IMG/VR virus record: IMGVR_UViG_3300044655_001242
Span: 1 to 26,503 of that record
Source: a virus
Direction: 5' to 3' (one strand)
Length of the DNA: 26,503 nt
Of this stretch, positions 750 through 20,600 are shown piece by piece. Both the position numbers and the translations under genes were made by a program. How positions within the stretch are numbered: the stretch's first letter is position 1; every line of letters begins with the position of its first letter. The notes under the pieces are model-generated. The model was not told where the DNA came from, did no database searches, and saw only the letters and a list, made by a program, of their open reading frames with translations.

Positions 750-1460
750 ATGAACGGTTTAGATGACGATATCAAGAAAGTAGCTATTTCATTATCAGGT
801 GGATTAGATAGTACGACATTATTGTATATGTTAGCAAACAAATATGGCAATGATAATGTTTATGCTATTTCATTTTACTATCAACAAAAACAAAGCATTG
901 AATTAGACTTAGCGAAAAAATCATGTGAAAAATTAGGTGTATCTCATAAGACAGTAGATATATCATTTTTAGGTGATATCGCACGTAAGGTTAGTACAAA
1001 TATTAGTGGTGCAGATATTGAAATGCCAACGATTGTTGATATTTTAGGTAATCCGCAACCTGTAACTTACGTTCCATTTAGAAACCTATTATTCTCGTCT
1101 ATGTTATTATCATTTGCAGAAGCAAATGAATGTGATGCAATTGCATTAGGTCTAAATTCAAATGATCAATATAACTATTGGGATACAACTCCTGAATTTG
1201 TTGAACGTTTATCTAGTATTGTTGAATTAAACAGAATGCATGGTATTAAGATTGTAACGCCATTAGTTAGTTTAAACAAAACAGAAGAGCTTAAACTTGG
1301 TTTAGAGTTAGGTTGCGATTATTCTAATACGATTACATGTTATGATCCAGTTGACGGTAAATCATGTGGTACATGTCCATCATGTGCAGAAAGAATAAGA
1401 GCATTTAAAAACATAGGTCAAAAAGATCCTATTGAATATTTGATTGATATTAATTGGTAA
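750..1460 (+). CDS. queC: QueC, 7-cyano-7-deazaguanine (preQ0) synthase
   Basis: A 236-residue protein of normal QueC length. QueC converts 7-carboxy-7-deazaguanine to preQ0 with ATP and ammonia. Visible marks are the N-terminal PP-loop S-G-G-L-D-S-T (residues 16-22), the internal segment Y-V-P-F-R-N, and the C-terminal zinc site C197, C206, C209, C212 (C-x8-C-G-T-C-x2-C) followed by R-I-R-A-F. The start ATG has CGGGG upstream and a near-consensus promoter at 690-718. The gene leads a plus-strand operon and is followed after 6 nt by a class II glutamine amidotransferase. In phages, preQ0 and its derivatives are inserted into DNA as guanine replacements that block restriction. Here that role is inferred from context, since the inserting transglycosylase (DpdA) is not in the window. 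Confidence 0.95.
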   Translation: MNGLDDDIKKVAISLSGGLDSTTLLYMLANKYGNDNVYAISFYYQQKQSIELDLAKKSCEKLGVSHKTVDISFLGDIARKVSTNISGADIEMPTIVDILGNPQPVTYVPFRNLLFSSMLLSFAEANECDAIALGLNSNDQYNYWDTTPEFVERLSSIVELNRMHGIKIVTPLVSLNKTEELKLGLELGCDYSNTITCYDPVDGKSCGTCPSCAERIRAFKNIGQKDPIEYLIDINW

Positions 1461-1466
1461 ATTATT

Positions 1467-2081
1467 ATGTGTTCTATTGTTGGTAGCTATTCAAAAGCAA
1501 AATTCCTTGAATTGATCAAACTCAATACATATCGTGGTGCATTTAGTCATTCATTGACTATTATTAAGCGAGATGGATATAATATTGTAAAAGATTTTGG
1601 TCCATTTAATGAAGACTTATTAAACACGGAATATTACGAAGAGGGGGATTATCTATTAGGTCATTGTCAAGCGCCAACGAACGGATTAGTAAAAGAATAC
1701 GACCGAATTCACCCATATCAAGGTAAACTAATATTATTGCATAATGGTATTATTAAGGATGCTGAAGTCGGTCGTATTAATTCTGAGTTGAATAGTGAGT
1801 ATGTGTGGGATACACAAGCGTTAGCTGAATATATTCAAGATGATTTTATGAAGTTATCAGACATTGAAGGATCATTTGCGTGTGTTTGCATTAAAAATAA
1901 TGAATTATTTGTGTTTAGAAATGCAATATCTCCATTGTATATGGATAGTGAATCTAATCTTAGCTCTACAAAATTTGCAGGGTCAGAGATGATTTTAAAT
2001 AATTCTATATACAAGTTACATAATAAAACGTTCGGTGTGGTCGAAACGTTTAATAACACGCATAACCCTTACTATTTTTAA
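1467..2081 (+). CDS. Class II glutamine amidotransferase (Gat of a split Gat-QueC)
   Basis: A 204-residue Ntn-type glutaminase domain. Cys2 directly follows the initiator Met and would be the N-terminal nucleophile, which fixes the start at this ATG. Other family motifs are T-Y-R-G (residues 21-24), G-H-C-Q-A-P-T (65-71), H-P (82-83), H-N-G (92-94), D-T-Q-A-L (115-119) and G-S-F-A. It begins 6 nt after the queC stop with no strong ribosome-binding site, suggesting translational coupling. Known biology: in some archaea a fused Gat-QueC makes archaeosine from preQ0 sites, and phages such as 9g carry Gat with queuosine-type genes and have deoxyarchaeosine in their DNA. By inference this enzyme supplies ammonia for turning a preQ0 or carboxy-deazaguanine base into an amidine or amide. 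Substrate and product are not proven. Confidence 0.8.
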   Translation: MCSIVGSYSKAKFLELIKLNTYRGAFSHSLTIIKRDGYNIVKDFGPFNEDLLNTEYYEEGDYLLGHCQAPTNGLVKEYDRIHPYQGKLILLHNGIIKDAEVGRINSELNSEYVWDTQALAEYIQDDFMKLSDIEGSFACVCIKNNELFVFRNAISPLYMDSESNLSSTKFAGSEMILNNSIYKLHNKTFGVVETFNNTHNPYYF

Positions 2082-11526: not shown

Positions 11527-12648
11527 TTACCACCCATCAGGAAAGAACTGATCAAAATTAACATCCATCCCACCGTTATTACCAAACACAGGAGGTGGAG
11601 GCATATAATCATCGTAGTCTTCATCAAAGAAATCGCTATCTTCTTTATGTTGAAATACAACATCATACGCGCGTTCTTCATATTGTACAAGTTCTTGTAG
11701 CATACGTACTAAAATAAGATGAGCTGCGATAGTATCATCATTACTACCGCTACGTGCAGCAAACGTTCCATTACGTCTAACAAAATTTTTCATCTCTGAA
11801 ATAACGACAGGTGATCTAATTTTTATTTTACCGGATTCAAAAATTTGTTTAAACAACAAACATACATTTGTTTTATTTTTACCGGTAAAGAACCCAATTC
11901 TTCGTTTACCAGGTTCAGAAATAAGATCACCAAACTCAACAGGATTCTCGTCTGATTCATACATGCTAATCAAACCTTCACCAATGCCATTATTTTCAAA
12001 ACTCCAATAACAATTTTCTGCACCACCAGCTTGTACAGTACGTAGCAAGTGTTTAAAAGTATTATAAACTAATGGTGTTGATGTTGTATTAGACCTAAAC
12101 TGAGCAATTTGTTCTAATTCTGGAAAACTATACAATAATATGACAGTATAATCAGATCCTGTGCCAGTTGATGGGTCAATTGCAATAGCGTAACTTTTAC
12201 CTGGTGTTATTTTATCAAACCAAGTTATTTCTCTTGCATCAGGTTCTGCTTTTGTATCACAATAATAATTAGTAATCAATGTAGAGCTAAACAATAATGG
12301 GTCAGATGAAATAAATTTACAATTGTGAGATAGAATATCATTAGCATAAAACGTATGAGATTCTGTTTCAACAACATCATAAACATCTTCCGTACCACCA
12401 TCTGTGATACTAACAATAGTTTTATTTGATTTACCACGTAGAGTTAAACCGACAGACACATCTTTTATTTGTATTTCGGTGTTGTCGGATGTGAATAAAA
12501 TATGACTATCTGTACCACTAATTGATGTACCATCATCAAATGTTAAAATTTTAACAGGTTTTGTACCCATTAATGCAACACCTGCAAATGATTCCCAGCC
12601 GTTAGGAGTTTTTATTTTAAAGTTGTTTATGTTTTTATGTAGCATCAT
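11527..12648 (-). CDS. Intein C-fragment fused to large terminase C-terminal half
   Basis: A 373-residue protein starting at ATG 12648 (AAGGA 8 nt upstream), overlapping the end of the HNH gene by 14 nt. Residues 1-109 are an intein C-fragment: block B with T46-D-S-H49, block F with V-Y-D-V-V, H98-T-F and Y-A-N-D-I-L, then S-H108-N109, followed by Cys110 as the +1 extein residue. Residues 110-373 are the nuclease half of a T4 gp17-type terminase: A-I-D158-P-S in the RNase H-like core, S-F-E218-N-N, and a terminal acidic pair N-D304-D305-T. These fit the three catalytic acidic positions of gp17 (D401, E458, D542). The tail is acidic with D-Y-M-P-P-P-P. Trans-splicing to the gene at 13518 would restore the packaging motor. 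Alone it lacks the ATPase. Confidence 0.93.
   Translation of the reverse strand: MMLHKNINNFKIKTPNGWESFAGVALMGTKPVKILTFDDGTSISGTDSHILFTSDNTEIQIKDVSVGLTLRGKSNKTIVSITDGGTEDVYDVVETESHTFYANDILSHNCKFISSDPLLFSSTLITNYYCDTKAEPDAREITWFDKITPGKSYAIAIDPSTGTGSDYTVILLYSFPELEQIAQFRSNTTSTPLVYNTFKHLLRTVQAGGAENCYWSFENNGIGEGLISMYESDENPVEFGDLISEPGKRRIGFFTGKNKTNVCLLFKQIFESGKIKIRSPVVISEMKNFVRRNGTFAARSGSNDDTIAAHLILVRMLQELVQYEERAYDVVFQHKEDSDFFDEDYDDYMPPPPVFGNNGGMDVNFDQFFPDGW
12322..12648 (-). other. Split intein C-fragment (109 aa)
   Basis: This fragment carries block B, F and G motifs, whereas most split inteins keep block B on the N-fragment. The break therefore lies between blocks A and B, as in the atypically split TerL intein AceL-TerL. 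All residues expected for splicing are present: block B Thr and His, block F His, penultimate His, terminal Asn and +1 Cys. No endonuclease domain is embedded. Confidence 0.9.
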
Positions 12649-13540
12649 ATTTGTTTCCTTTAGATATGTTTTCTCTCCATGTCAACATTTGTAAGTTATC
12701 AACATCTGCAATTATTGTAGGTAAAATACCATTGATAAACCCATAGTGAATTGGAATTATATGATCTAAATGGTACCCATCGCCGCCTGTAGTACGATGG
12801 TAACCATTAGGGTTGATACGGTCTTTATTTTGTCGGTAATTACGGTTTGTAAGCTTCCAAACAATACTTTTATATTTGTACCAGTCAGATCTATCATCTG
12901 GGTGTACACATTTACCTTGAGACCATAATTTTATAGATCGTTGTAACCAAGTATCATCGGTAGCGTAATCATTCATCCATTTACCACCTAATGATTCACG
13001 TACACGTGTTAAAAATTGTTTTTTTCGTTCAACGGTCCAATTTAATTTTGTGTTTGACGCTTTCGATGGATTACTAAACGTTGGATCCCCGTACTTTTCC
13101 ATGCAAGTATGTCTACGCTTGGTAACAGCTTTCATGTAGGTTCCATTTTCGACGCACTGATCTCGTGATTTCTTACGTTTTTGTTTGTTAACCTCACGAT
13201 TAGTCTCTAAGGTCTGGTGCAACTTAACACGTTTGTTTTCCCAATATTCAACTGGTTTAGCATTTACAGTCGCTGATATTATTTTACCTCTGCAAACTTT
13301 ATTACCGCATGATGTACCAAAAGACATTGTAGTAGAAACAAATTTATTGATTTCACCACATGAGCAATATTGAATAAAGTCCGGGTAGCACGAAATAAAA
13401 AAATCACGATAACTATGAAATCCGTTATGTGTTAAATGACGTAAAAACGTACCATTAGCTCTACAGTATGTTTCACCATTCAAAGGAGATACAACATATT
13501 TTTGTGATAACATTTCACTAGTTTCTTTGTAACATTTCAT
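12635..13540 (-). CDS. Free-standing HNH homing endonuclease within the split terL
   Basis: A 301-residue protein lying between the two terminase halves, overlapping the upstream one by 23 nt and the downstream one by 14 nt. An N-terminal zinc-binding region has C59-x-C61 and C78-x4-C83. Around residues 143-160 is a C-M-E-K-Y-G-D-P-T-F-S-N-P-S-K segment seen in phage homing endonucleases. The C-terminus has the HNH site: Y-H257-L-D-H260-I-I-P, D-N282-L-Q-M-L and R-E-N291-I-S-K-G-N-K. Known biology: in fractured genes with split inteins, a separate endonuclease cuts intein-less alleles and spreads the cassette; those first described carried a different endonuclease family. Mobility here is inferred. 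An alternative start at Met10 (13513) is possible, since no strong ribosome-binding site precedes the first ATG. Confidence 0.88.
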   Translation of the reverse strand: MKCYKETSEMLSQKYVVSPLNGETYCRANGTFLRHLTHNGFHSYRDFFISCYPDFIQYCSCGEINKFVSTTMSFGTSCGNKVCRGKIISATVNAKPVEYWENKRVKLHQTLETNREVNKQKRKKSRDQCVENGTYMKAVTKRRHTCMEKYGDPTFSNPSKASNTKLNWTVERKKQFLTRVRESLGGKWMNDYATDDTWLQRSIKLWSQGKCVHPDDRSDWYKYKSIVWKLTNRNYRQNKDRINPNGYHRTTGGDGYHLDHIIPIHYGFINGILPTIIADVDNLQMLTWRENISKGNKYDAT

Positions 13541-14396
13541 ATAAATCTTTAATAGGTATTTTTACAATTTCGTTATCGTTAATTAGAACTTCAACTAGAC
13601 TATCACCACGCAAACATTCATATTCTTGTTCCCATTTTTGAAGTCCTACCTTACCAATCTCTTGCTGTTTAAATGATTCATCTCTACCTGGTACTGTATC
13701 CCATTGTACAAAGAATGGAATAAACCCATTATTATTGAGGTTAGCACCTCTCCACAACTCAGCAAATTTATTATCATCGCCGTTTGGTGTGCTAGCAATG
13801 ATACAGCTACCACCAGTCGATAATGTAGGTGAAATAGAGGTCCAAAATTCTTCTGCTATAGATGGTTCAACAAACGCAAATTCGTCTGCAAAAAGTAAGG
13901 ATACAGACATACCCCGACCACTTTGCTCTGTTGTTGATTCTGATACAATTCGGTTTTTATTAGCAAATTCAATTTCTAATTTATTCCAGTTATTTGGGTT
14001 AATTGCAGGTTTAATCCAATCTGGTAAATTCTCATACATAAACACAATACGTTTAACCATATCTTTAGCACTTTTAGCTTTATTAGATATAATTAAAATT
14101 TCTTTATGTGAATTAAAGCATGCGTACCATAATAAAAAACCGCATGATGTTTGAGACTTACCTACTTGTCGACTAGCACAGACAATTGTTGATCTATTAT
14201 TGTGAAATGAGTCAACTAACTCACGTTGAAAATCGTATAATTTAAAACCAACCATACCTCTTGTAGGGTGGGTAATTTTACAATACGTCTCAATAAAATA
14301 TACTGGATCTTGAATACATTTTAACAATTCTAAAGCTTGTTCGGGTGTATACTCTTCCGGTGGACCCGGCATCTTTAATCTGGAGTTCTTAGCCAT
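13518..14396 (-). CDS. Large terminase N-terminal half (ATPase) fused to intein N-fragment
   Basis: A 292-residue protein. Residues 1-260 are the ATPase half of a T4 gp17-type large terminase, which pumps DNA into the prohead: F-K-L-Y-D-F-Q-R-E-L (adenine-binding Q region), Walker A A-S-R-Q-V-G-K80-S, Walker B S-L-L-F-A-D171-E172-F, and coupling motif A-S-T-P-N-G (201-206). At Cys261, just after the conserved W-E-Q-E-Y-E, the sequence switches to an intein N-fragment and stops after 32 residues. The nuclease half is in a separate gene 0.9 kb downstream. The start overlaps the small terminase gene by 8 nt, so translation is coupled. Joined to the other half at E260-Cys110 the product would be about 524 residues, reasonable against 610 in T4. 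Confidence 0.95.
   Translation of the reverse strand: MAKNSRLKMPGPPEEYTPEQALELLKCIQDPVYFIETYCKITHPTRGMVGFKLYDFQRELVDSFHNNRSTIVCASRQVGKSQTSCGFLLWYACFNSHKEILIISNKAKSAKDMVKRIVFMYENLPDWIKPAINPNNWNKLEIEFANKNRIVSESTTEQSGRGMSVSLLFADEFAFVEPSIAEEFWTSISPTLSTGGSCIIASTPNGDDNKFAELWRGANLNNNGFIPFFVQWDTVPGRDESFKQQEIGKVGLQKWEQEYECLRGDSLVEVLINDNEIVKIPIKDLYEMLQRN
13521..13616 (-). other. Split intein N-fragment (32 aa)
   Basis: Block A motif C-L-R-G-D-S-L-V with the catalytic Cys1, followed by a beta strand and I-K-D-L-Y-E-M-L, then a stop codon. The N-fragment of the AceL-TerL intein is similarly short, about 25 residues, and ends in a like helix. Fewer than 40 residues is unusual, since most natural split inteins have an N-fragment near 90-100 residues. 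Confidence 0.9.
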
Positions 14397-16926: not shown

Positions 16927-17571
16927 TTAGAAACCACCAATAGCAGTACCATAATTGGTATTTTCAACAATTTGATAAGCGTGGTCATATCTCATTGAAA
17001 TATCAATAGTCACTTGATCGCCAGCGCTGTAATCAACGTCACCGTAATTAACTGATTTAAACCAGCAACCTTGTAAAACCCAAGTTTCAAGGATTTTATC
17101 ACCACCATCTAACATAGCTAATTCACAAGCGAATTTATATTCACTAGCTACAGCAGCTGGTTGTAAGAAGTTAGGGTTGCTTTGAATTGCTCCACCAATT
17201 GTACCGTTCATACCGCCAACTAACAATTGTTGTTTTTCAATTTGGTTTTGAAGTTGCAATGAAGCACGACTATTAACGTCATCTTCTAACGTAATACTAA
17301 TCGGTTCCCAAGAATGCTTTGCTGCAACATAAGCAATTGAGTTATAGCGTTGGATTGTATTATCTTCCCAAGATAAGTTTGGGCGAGACATTTTAACAAC
17401 CTGCATTGTTACCGCATTTGCAGTACCAACATTTGTGATTCCAACAGCTGGGTTAGGTAAGATACGATTGCCGCCTAAGCCGGTAAATGTAGCTTTCCAT
17501 CTATTTTTATGCTTTGGGTGATAAATGCCTTGGTTGGCAATATCAATACCCATATCATGTATAGTAGCCAT
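16927..17571 (-). CDS. Tail tube protein (T4 gp19-like)
   Basis: A 214-residue protein, slightly longer than T4 gp19 (163 aa). It has the tube pattern N-R-W-K-A-T-F near the N-terminus, V-V-K-M-S-R-P-N-L-S-W-E (strand leading to the conserved R-P), H-S-W-E-P-I-S-I-T-L-E-D-D, L-Q-N-Q-I, then W-V-L-Q-G-C-W-F-K-S-V-N-Y-G-D-V-D-Y and I-D-I-S-M-R-Y-D-H-A. The ring-forming protein would line the tail channel. Start is ATG 17571; AGGAG lies 12 nt upstream, a rather long spacing. Its late promoter (17609-17616) is back-to-back with that of the sheath gene, so tube and sheath are transcribed divergently from one 100-bp control region. Confidence 0.93.
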   Translation of the reverse strand: MATIHDMGIDIANQGIYHPKHKNRWKATFTGLGGNRILPNPAVGITNVGTANAVTMQVVKMSRPNLSWEDNTIQRYNSIAYVAAKHSWEPISITLEDDVNSRASLQLQNQIEKQQLLVGGMNGTIGGAIQSNPNFLQPAAVASEYKFACELAMLDGGDKILETWVLQGCWFKSVNYGDVDYSAGDQVTIDISMRYDHAYQIVENTNYGTAIGGF

Positions 17572-17608
17572 TTTAGTAAGTTACTCCTAAATTGTATTTG
17601 ATATCAGG

Positions 17609-17616
17609 TATTTATG
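17609..17616 (-). promoter_or_regulatory. Late promoter for tail tube operon
   Basis: The minus strand reads CATAAATA, with ACC following as in other late sites. It is 38 nt upstream of the tube ATG and forms a divergent pair with the plus-strand site at 17625. Confidence 0.65.
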
Positions 17617-17624
17617 GTTATTTG

Positions 17625-17632
17625 CATAAATA
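17625..17632 (+). promoter_or_regulatory. Late promoter for tail sheath
   Basis: The plus strand reads CATAAATA, 42 nt upstream of the chosen sheath ATG at 17674. Because it lies downstream of the in-frame ATG at 17614, it also argues against that earlier start. Confidence 0.65.
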
Positions 17633-17673
17633 CAATATCTCACAGAATTGACGTCGAATTAGGAGTTTATAAT

Positions 17674-20600
17674 ATGGCATTACTTAGCCCAGGCGTACAA
17701 GTCACAGTAACTGACAAATCGATATATTTGCCAGCTGCTGAGACTACCGTACCCTTATTTTTCATTGCTACAAAATACGGAAAACTGCTTCCCAATTCAA
17801 ATACGGTCGCACAAGGTACAATTGAAGCGGGTGTACCTAGATTAATTACATCACTACGTGATAGTATTGAATCATACGGTATCCCAGTTTTTTACCGTGA
17901 TGTATATGATCAACCACACCATGGTGATTGCCGTAACGAATACGGGTTGTTAGCTTTAAACCAATTTTTAAAATTGGGTAACCGCGCTTATGTTATTCGT
18001 GCGGACATCGATTTAGATGATAATATTGAAAGTTTACAAGATAAATGGGGTTTAGCAACAGATCGCGTTGTAAATTCAGCTGCAGCGATGTTCAGTGCTT
18101 ACCTTGCGAGCGTTGATGATATTATCTCTGATTCAGTAACAACATTGGGTGGGTTTGTTGAACCACCAGCAATTCCACCAAATGCAACAACTGCACAAAT
18201 TCTTGCACTTACAGATGCATATTATGCAAATGTAACCCGTGCGCACGACGAAAATGTAAAATTAGCACATATCGTTAAAGCAGCTACAGTTGAACTCATC
18301 AAAGAAACAAGTACATTTGGTAATAAATTTCCAAATTCAACAATGTACAACATTTCAGATATTTTGGCTGGAAACTACGTTAACGTTGAAACTGAAATTG
18401 TTCAAAATGATGTTGGTGGTAAAACACACACAGTTTATGTGTATGAACCATATACAGAAAACACTGACCCAGTAGTAACTGGTAAAGATTCATACTACAA
18501 CTTATTGGTATCTAGCGGTGCAAGAAAAGTATTAGCTCAAGCGCCAACAGCAGCATCATTAATTAACCCATTACCAATTGAACCAGATTTATCTCAACTA
18601 TTTGTTGGTATCACTGGTAAATTACAACGTGCATTGATTGATCAAAACACATTGATTGGTGGTACAGTTGTTAAGTATGATGCTCCAACATTGGCAGCTA
18701 AATTTACAACATTACCAACTGATATTACATTCCAAACAACAGGGTCTGATAACTTTGTTATTACCGGTAATATCACAGGTATTGTACCTCAAGTTGATGC
18801 TGTTACGAAAGCGGTAATTTCATACAAATGCCGTACTGATTTCACAATTGCAGGTAATGTATTAAAAACAATTGCTGGTGCGACACCAGTAATTTATAAA
18901 GGTACAATTGCTGGTAAAGCTAGTGGTTATATCAATTACGTACCAGCTAGTGGTTCAGGTGCATCAGCTGTAGCTAGTACAGCTAAATTGATGAACAATG
19001 TTATTTTTGATTTAACATTATCTGTATCTGGTGTATCAACAGCGGTATCGTATACATTAGAAGCAACAGCTGATTTTGATCATATTTTTGTACCTATTAC
19101 ATCAGGTGCAATGACATATACGATCGACCCTGCAGCATTGACTAACTTTACGTTTGCGCCAGCATTACCTACCGGGGTAACATTAAATAATACACTTACA
19201 AGTAAATGTATCATTACTGGTAAAATCATTAAAGCTGTTCCATACTTAGATACCAATAGCAACACGTTGTATCATTTGCATACACGTTTTGAATTAGCTG
19301 GTAATGTAACTCAAGTGGTAGGTACAACAACCACCACTGGTACATTAAACAGTACAGGTTATAGTTATGCGATTGTTAATTATGATCCAGTTACTAAAAC
19401 GTGTACGTTAGAATCAACATTTGATATTGATGCATCATTAGTATTAGGTACAGCAACAGGTGTAGCACAAAAAATTACAGTTACACCATCGGTTGCAAAC
19501 CCTGTAACATTATTACATACGGTTAACGCTGCTGATACAGTGGTATTAGGTACACCAGCTGTATCAATCAATGTAGCAAACAAATCAAAAGTTGGATACA
19601 CAGCTGTTAACCCATTGGGTGGTATTGATCTTAACTTGTTTAAAGCTATTGTACGTGAAGGTTGTGAAGAATACTTAAAAACTTACAGCTGGTACAACAG
19701 TACACATCCAAAAGGTAAAGCAGTAACAACATCAACTGCAGATGCTGTACGTAGACAAGGTATTGTGTTAAAATTGAGTCAAATCATTAAAGCTAACACA
19801 ACTGTTAACTATAACATCTCAAGTGATTTTGATGACGTTAGTGATATTACATCAGAAGCGTATGAATTTAATACAATTTTATGCCCTGGTTTCCCAGAGC
19901 TTGCTGATGAAATGTTAGAATTAGCAGATCGCGTAAAACAAGAAGCATTTGTTATTGCTGATACACCATATTGGATGTCACCTCGTGATGTTATTCAATG
20001 GGGACGTTCAGTAGATGAAAGCACAGTTGTTTCAGCTGCTGCTAACATCAGATCTGACAATGGTGGTAAAATTGCTTACTACTACCCACATGGGTTAGTT
20101 GCTAACCTTGATGGTTATGATGTATTCTGCGCAGCATCTGGTCTTGCATTAGCAGCATTTGCTTATACAGATAAAAACGGTAACATTTGGGATGCACCTG
20201 CTGGTCCAAATAGAGGTGTTGTTTCAAGCTACCTTGGCGTTACACGCGTAGGTTATGTTACTCAAGCAAATTTAGGTACATCATCAGCACAATTTAATCG
20301 TGTAAGATTAAATGACGGTATGCGTGATAGCTTATACAGCTTGTGCAACATTAACCCAATTCAAGATTCAATCCAAAATGGTATTGCAATCTGGGGACAA
20401 AAAACACGTGTAAGTGTTAACTTTAACTCAGCGTTAGATCGTATTAATGTTTCTCGTATGGTTATGCACATCCGTCGTATGGTCAGAAAAATGTTAGTAC
20501 AATATTTGATGCAACCAAACGTTGCTGTTACACGTAAAAATGTTACATCGTTAGTTGTTGGTTTCTTAAACAACATTCGTGTTAACAACGGTTTATACGA

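What the first reader, a model, noticed from the sequence alone, without database searches (positions are those of the whole stretch)
11527..14396. Fractured large terminase with an atypically split intein that looks fully active
The ATPase half ends in a 32-residue intein N-fragment (block A only) and the nuclease half starts with a 109-residue C-fragment that includes block B. The break between blocks A and B is rare; the known case I can name is the AceL-TerL intein, also from a phage terminase. All expected splicing residues are visible: Cys1, block B T-x-x-H, block F His, His-Asn and +1 Cys. Neither half can package alone, so the phage should depend on trans-splicing. A complete genomic context is given here.
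Basis: partly seen in the sequence, partly recalled or inferred. Interest (0 to 1): 0.85.

Follow-up and report, generated by a model that had tools for sequence, protein, structure and literature searches.

The report
Split-intein phage packaging gene with homing nuclease
A phage's DNA-packaging enzyme is encoded in two separate pieces that probably glue themselves together as proteins, with a probable self-spreading DNA-cutting gene wedged between them; this is a well-preserved new example of a known arrangement, made more useful by a close relative in which the two pieces are still one.

Summary
On the minus strand, a T4-gp17-type terminase is broken into TerL-N (260 aa) + IntN (32 aa) and IntC (109 aa) + TerL-C (264 aa), with every class 1 splicing residue present. 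The joined exteins align without a gap at the junction to an intein-free relative (55.5% identity).

The unit is a "fractured gene" with a probable homing endonuclease.

IntN and IntC match the solved consensus of the AceL/GOS TerL family (CatN/CatC) best: a new member of a known kind. The A/B break is not rare at this site: of 54 dereplicated loci, 45 are split and 9 contiguous. The gap holds GIY-YIG, HNH, EDxHD-like, DUF7487 or no nuclease.

New points: (1) the closest relative (L003) carries the same intein unbroken, and its only disordered loop is where the window is split; (2) IntC is under purifying selection (dN/dS 0.12); (3) a second strain has ~13% diverged TerL-N but near-identical IntN and nuclease start, suggesting recent transfer. 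Splicing and cleavage are untested.

The parts
13617..14396 (-). TerL N-extein (residues 1-260): ATPase half of a T4-gp17-type large terminase, Walker A SRQVGKS, Walker B LLFADE, STPNG motif
   Evidence: Pfam Terminase_6N 2.3e-17; PHROG 5989 8e-53; T4 gp17 9.1e-48 with the joined exteins
13521..13616 (-). IntN, 32 residues (block A and N2-like helix), starts with Cys1; stop codon 13518-13520
   Evidence: Best PDB match 6dsl_A CatN, E 0.002, next (unrelated) chain 0.86
12635..13540 (-). Intervening ORF, 301 aa: Cys-rich N-terminal region, C-terminal HNH/endonuclease VII-like domain; probable homing endonuclease. Overlaps the IntN ORF by 23 nt and the IntC ORF by 14 nt
   Evidence: PHROG 5104 2.5e-16 (unknown function) and PHROG 1035 endonuclease VII 8.6e-5; conserved DH...N...N motif; nearest full-length homologue is a free-standing gene next to a portal-like gene in another phage (L095)
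12668..12766 (-). HNH-like catalytic motif of the intervening ORF (D259-H260, N282, N291)
   Evidence: Invariant in 6 aligned sequences; Pfam HNH only 0.25
12322..12648 (-). IntC, 109 residues, blocks B to G, block B TDSH, block F His, ends SHN; own ATG with a Shine-Dalgarno-like AAAGGA at 12656-12661
   Evidence: Best PDB match 6dsl_B CatC 2e-8; Pfam Intein_splicing 1.5e-4, below its cut-off; dN/dS 0.12 against L003; upstream sequence
11530..12321 (-). TerL C-extein (264 residues) beginning with Cys+1: RNase H-like nuclease half; stop 11527-11529
   Evidence: Pfam Terminase_6C 2.2e-9; aligned without a gap at the junction with intein-free L020
13428..13642 (-). Block of near identity (1 mismatch in 215 nt) with strain L018, whose TerL-N is otherwise about 13% different; it begins 26 nt outside the intein and runs to the contig end inside the nuclease ORF

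Best explanation
A fractured terminase gene with an AceL/Cat-type atypical split intein and a free-standing HNH-like homing endonuclease in the break. Inferred mechanism: the three overlapping ORFs are translated from one transcript; the 32-aa IntN at the end of the ATPase half docks into the large, nearly complete IntC at the start of the nuclease half; Cys1 and Cys+1 carry the acyl transfer, His-Asn cyclisation releases the intein, and a 524-aa terminase results. The 301-aa nuclease is inferred to cut terL alleles that lack the element, at or near the insertion site, so that recombination copies IntN + nuclease + IntC as one unit; trans-splicing keeps the essential gene functional. Shown by sequence: gene structure, catalytic residues, exact extein joint, family membership, purifying selection on IntC, near-identity of the 5' part of the element between diverged strains. 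Inferred: co-transcription, splicing, cleavage, homing.
For: Intact ORFs with conserved splicing residues. The joined exteins match intein-free L020 (QEYE|CEFISSDPLLFSS) over 521 aligned residues at 55.5%, with no gap at the junction, and T4 gp17 at 9.1e-48. IntN and IntC each hit the Cat (AceL/GOS consensus) pair first in the PDB. Against L003, IntC has dN/dS 0.12 with the same dS (1.05) as the C-extein (1.06), so it has been kept by selection and probably inherited with its host gene. The contiguous L003 intein is predicted with mean pLDDT 91.2, and its only segment under 50 (residues 33-40) is where the window is broken; top fold match VidaL, TM 0.83. The same split site and a similar layout occur in seven phage genome records: PX29, Va1, 92A1, PSTRCR_127, EniLVp02, VP-1 and 1.244.A; six of these records name a bacterial host, so phages of this kind evidently multiply. 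Nuclease ORF. Transfer signature.
Against: No splicing, cleavage or expression data. The nuclease assignment rests on PHROG matches and a motif; Pfam HNH is only 0.25, and the full-length model is poor (pLDDT 48.5, no fold hit). IntN evolves faster than the rest (dN/dS 0.43 over 29 codons). The near-identity block is cut by the contig end (its last 127 nt look like the assembler's overlap), and one other comparable block lies elsewhere in the same 7 kb alignment, so ordinary recombination is not excluded.
Confidence: 0.88

Rival explanations
1. Genes in pieces: the terminase works as two separate polypeptides without splicing, as reported for the ribonucleotide reductase split by a homing endonuclease (cited in PMC10448857).
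For: ATPase and nuclease are distinct domains and the break lies between them.
Against: All splicing residues are kept and IntC is under purifying selection; the extein joint is exact; contiguous versions exist at the same site.
Confidence: 0.05
2. Decaying element: split intein remnants in a terminase gene that no longer makes a working enzyme.
For: Metagenomic fragment without functional data; IntN is diverged from L003.
Against: Open frames, conserved catalytic residues, same arrangement in independent assemblies and in phage genome records.
Confidence: 0.03
3. RNA-level removal: the middle ORF sits in a self-splicing intron, so no protein splicing is needed.
For: Terminase introns exist in phages (PMC10448857 describes one in ICP1).
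Against: No Rfam match in the window; removing the gap as RNA would still leave the intein coding sequence; each half has its own start and stop and overlaps the nuclease ORF.
Confidence: 0.02
4. The two halves do trans-splice, but the middle ORF is not the homing nuclease of this element: it is a chance passenger or a nuclease that helps packaging.
For: Weak Pfam support; HNH proteins can act with terminases (discussed in PMC10448857).
Against: The same slot holds several unrelated nuclease families in relatives, and the nearest full-length relative of the ORF is free-standing near structural genes.
Confidence: 0.15

Closest known systems
AceL-TerL / GOS-TerL / Cat atypical split inteins (review PMC11766414; PDB 6dsl)
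   Same: Terminase large subunit, short IntN (25, 37 and 30 aa there; 32 here), long IntC (104 in Cat; 109 here); best PDB match for both fragments
   Different: A distinct, deeply branching sequence (24-35% identity to other IntC of this site apart from L003); here the flanking genes, the nuclease ORF and a contiguous sister are visible
Fractured genes with split inteins and an intervening homing endonuclease (Dassa et al. 2009, cited in PMC11766414; the paper is not held, so details are from my own knowledge)
   Same: Two gene halves with a split intein and an endonuclease ORF between them
   Different: The nuclease here is HNH/endonuclease VII-like, not of the EDxHD (Vsr-like) family described there
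Aeromonas phage PX29 gp17A/17B (GU396103)
   Same: Same TerL site, IntN of 33 aa; the record notes a putative N-intein and C-intein
   Different: GIY-YIG nuclease fused to IntC instead of a free-standing HNH-like ORF
AceL NrdHF split class 3 intein (PMC7891396)
   Same: Fractured phage gene with split intein and an intervening putative homing endonuclease (GIY-YIG)
   Different: Ribonucleotide reductase, class 3 chemistry, canonical split site (98 + 48 aa)
L003, IMGVR_UViG_3300042505_000794
   Same: Same intein at the same site in a close relative (exteins 88-94%, IntC 80% amino-acid identity)
   Different: Contiguous 142-aa intein, no nuclease; carries a second, split intein at Walker B

Membership tests
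AceL/GOS/Cat atypical TerL split inteins | Inserted in a gp17-type terminase between ATPase and nuclease, at QEYE/C | tested here: met
   Junction aligned with intein-free L020 and T4 gp17
AceL/GOS/Cat atypical TerL split inteins | Short IntN (25-37 aa) and long IntC (about 104 aa), broken between blocks A and B | tested here: met
   32 + 109 aa; lengths of known members from PMC11766414
AceL/GOS/Cat atypical TerL split inteins | Sequence homology of both fragments to the family | tested here: met
   6dsl_A 0.002 and 6dsl_B 2e-8, each the top hit
AceL/GOS/Cat atypical TerL split inteins | Class 1 catalytic residues (Cys1, TxxH, block F His, HN, Cys+1) | tested here: met
   Sequence and alignment A1
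AceL/GOS/Cat atypical TerL split inteins | Protein trans-splicing activity | not testable with these tools
   Needs co-expression
Fractured gene with split intein and homing endonuclease | Endonuclease ORF between the two split-intein gene halves | tested here: met
   ORF 12635-13540, PHROG 1035 endonuclease VII 8.6e-5, DH..N..N motif; assignment probable, Pfam weak
Fractured gene with split intein and homing endonuclease | Endonuclease of the EDxHD (Vsr-like) family, as in the original description (not required for the general arrangement) | tested here: not met
   No MTES_1575 or DUF559 match for this ORF, unlike L009, L122 and L171
Fractured gene with split intein and homing endonuclease | Element spreads between alleles (homing) | tested here: inconclusive
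   1 mismatch in 215 nt at the element against about 13% in TerL-N, but another such block exists and the contig ends there

The most novel reading that the evidence does not exclude
The A/B break of this terminase intein is a reversible cis/trans junction that serves as a docking slot for unrelated homing nucleases: the halves separate when a nuclease gene enters the flexible loop, nucleases are swapped or lost, and the halves sometimes fuse again. The window and its sister L003 would be one recent instance of such a change.
Probability: 0.5. Interest if true: 0.65.

Novelty: new member of a known kind. Interest (0 to 1): 0.45.

Why it matters
Atypically split inteins are valued for protein labelling because their IntN is so short, yet few have been studied. 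This gives another natural 32 + 109 pair, a contiguous sister with 80% identical IntC (a natural cis/trans pair to compare), and evidence that hundreds of relatives exist in phage contigs. It also shows how one essential phage gene can be invaded at several sites by elements with different nucleases, which makes the origin of split inteins directly testable.

Tried and rejected
RNA intron: the Rfam scan at gathering thresholds found nothing. The Pfam NPC1 match of the middle ORF (7.6e-4, below its cut-off) was rejected as chance; PHROG and motif evidence point to a nuclease. Structure of the middle ORF: model too poor for a fold search. Direction of change between window (split) and L003 (contiguous): the tree joins them with full support, but their outgroup is an unresolved polytomy, so split-to-cis or cis-to-split cannot be decided; the junction of L003 shows no clear nuclease relic. 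More members of the window/L003 clade: a further scan found only loci already known. Papers by Dassa 2009, Stevens 2018 and Bachmann 2015 are not held. A search with a second alignment failed for lack of a conserved stretch. Taking L018 as proof of homing was rejected because of the second near-identical block and the contig end.

Full report
What is there. The minus strand carries three overlapping ORFs: 13518-14396 (292 aa), 12635-13540 (301 aa) and 11527-12648 (373 aa). The outer two are the ATPase and nuclease halves of a T4-gp17-type large terminase (Terminase_6N 2.3e-17, Terminase_6C 2.2e-9; PHROG 5989 8e-53). The first ends in a 32-residue intein N-fragment, the last begins with a 109-residue C-fragment. 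Removing both gives a 524-residue protein that aligns with an intein-free relative (L020, 289 of 521 aligned residues identical) with no gap at the junction, QEYE|CKFISSDPLLFSS against QEYE|CEFISSDPLLFSS, and with T4 gp17 at 9.1e-48. The arrangement recurs in two other assemblies at 99.6-99.9% nucleotide identity, so it is not an assembly error.

Splicing residues. Cys1, block B TDSH, block F His, His-Asn and Cys+1 are present; I12, T14, G17, H49, H108, N109, C110 and F112 of the C-fragment are invariant across ten sequences from this terminase site. Membership in that family is therefore tested and met on all features that sequence can test.

The missed gene. The 301-aa ORF fills the break and overlaps both neighbours. 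Its C-terminal part matches PHROG 5104 (2.5e-16, unknown function) and, over a longer stretch, PHROG 1035, endonuclease VII (8.6e-5); D259-H260, N282 and N291 are invariant in six aligned sequences. Its nearest full-length relative is a free-standing gene next to a portal-like gene in another phage, among other nuclease-like ORFs (L095; the names of the neighbours are my reading of the translations). I read it as a homing endonuclease; Pfam support is weak (HNH 0.25) and its model is poor, so this is probable, not shown.

A close relative is unbroken. L003 (IMGVR_UViG_3300042505_000794) shares 88-94% of extein residues and 80% of IntC, but has the intein as one 142-residue chain without a nuclease. 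Synonymous divergence is alike in IntC (1.05) and the C-extein (1.06), so the intein was probably inherited with the gene since the two lineages parted; dN/dS of IntC is 0.12, of IntN 0.43 over 29 codons. AlphaFold2 gives the L003 intein a mean pLDDT of 91.2, and the only segment below 50 is residues 33-40, between the helix that ends IntN in the window and the strand that starts IntC. The top fold match is VidaL, TM 0.83, which to my own knowledge is also an atypical split intein. The break therefore lies in a flexible loop.

How common it is. Scanning IMG/VR with the C-fragment alignment found at least 335 relatives. Of 54 dereplicated loci at the window's site, 45 are split and 9 contiguous; of the split ones 33 carry a nuclease-sized insert, 9 do not, and 3 are cut by contig ends. 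IntN is about 27-44 residues in 37 of the 42 readable cases (one value of 21 is a measuring artefact of mine). The insert is GIY-YIG, HNH_3, EDxHD-like (MTES_1575/DUF559), DUF7487 or unassigned, and is free-standing, fused to IntC, fused to IntN or absent. Seven phage genome records share this split site. On the IntC tree the contiguous state needs seven changes, at least four of them forced by well-supported branches, and the window is sister to L003 with 100/100 support. L179 and L183 have identical IntC proteins, yet L183 lacks about 566 nt with the nuclease ORF. Changes between split and contiguous, and gain or loss of a nuclease, have thus happened repeatedly; their direction is unresolved. 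The loci were fetched by a conserved C-terminal motif and are not a random sample.

Sign of transfer. Strain L018, from the same sample as a contig identical to the window (L016), differs by about 13% over TerL-N and about 18% over 7 kb, yet has one mismatch in 215 nt from 26 nt outside the intein to the contig end inside the nuclease ORF. This is the least diverged 215-nt stretch of the alignment, but a second one, almost as low, lies at window + 17538-17753, and the final 127 nt look like the assembler's overlap. It suggests recent transfer of the element and does not prove homing.

Verdict. An intact, selected, probably functional member of the AceL/Cat TerL split-intein family in a fractured gene with a probable HNH-like homing endonuclease. 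It is ordinary for this family and site; its value lies in the natural cis/trans pair with L003.

Noticed in passing
L155 375-6246 (IMGVR_UViG_3300022187_001873); similarly L121 3651-9022: Terminase apparently encoded in four pieces with three split inteins and nuclease-like ORFs in the gaps; two inner pieces of L155 run IntC-extein-IntN, one with an extein of only about 11 residues. Three trans-splicing reactions would be needed for one enzyme.
   Followed up: partly
L003 3520-5628: Second split intein at Walker B (LLF|C...N|CDEF) with a 396-aa ORF in the gap; the empty window allele has Ala where L003 has the +1 Cys.
   Followed up: partly
L004 4745-6792; L098 330-2078; L011 1846-4062: Inteins at Walker A (GK|C...N|T), split in L004 (about 40-aa IntN, no nuclease, genes overlapping) and contiguous in L011.
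   Followed up: partly
L179 4378-4943 versus L183 2130-2139: Same IntC protein with and without the HNH ORF; the difference is a clean indel of about 566 nt.
   Followed up: partly
window 17538-17753: Second stretch of near identity with strain L018 (2 mismatches in 215 nt) around the starts of two divergent genes.
   Followed up: no
window 750-2081: A PP-loop (ExsB/QueC-like) protein followed by a glutamine amidotransferase-like protein at one end of the fragment, read from the translations only.
   Followed up: no
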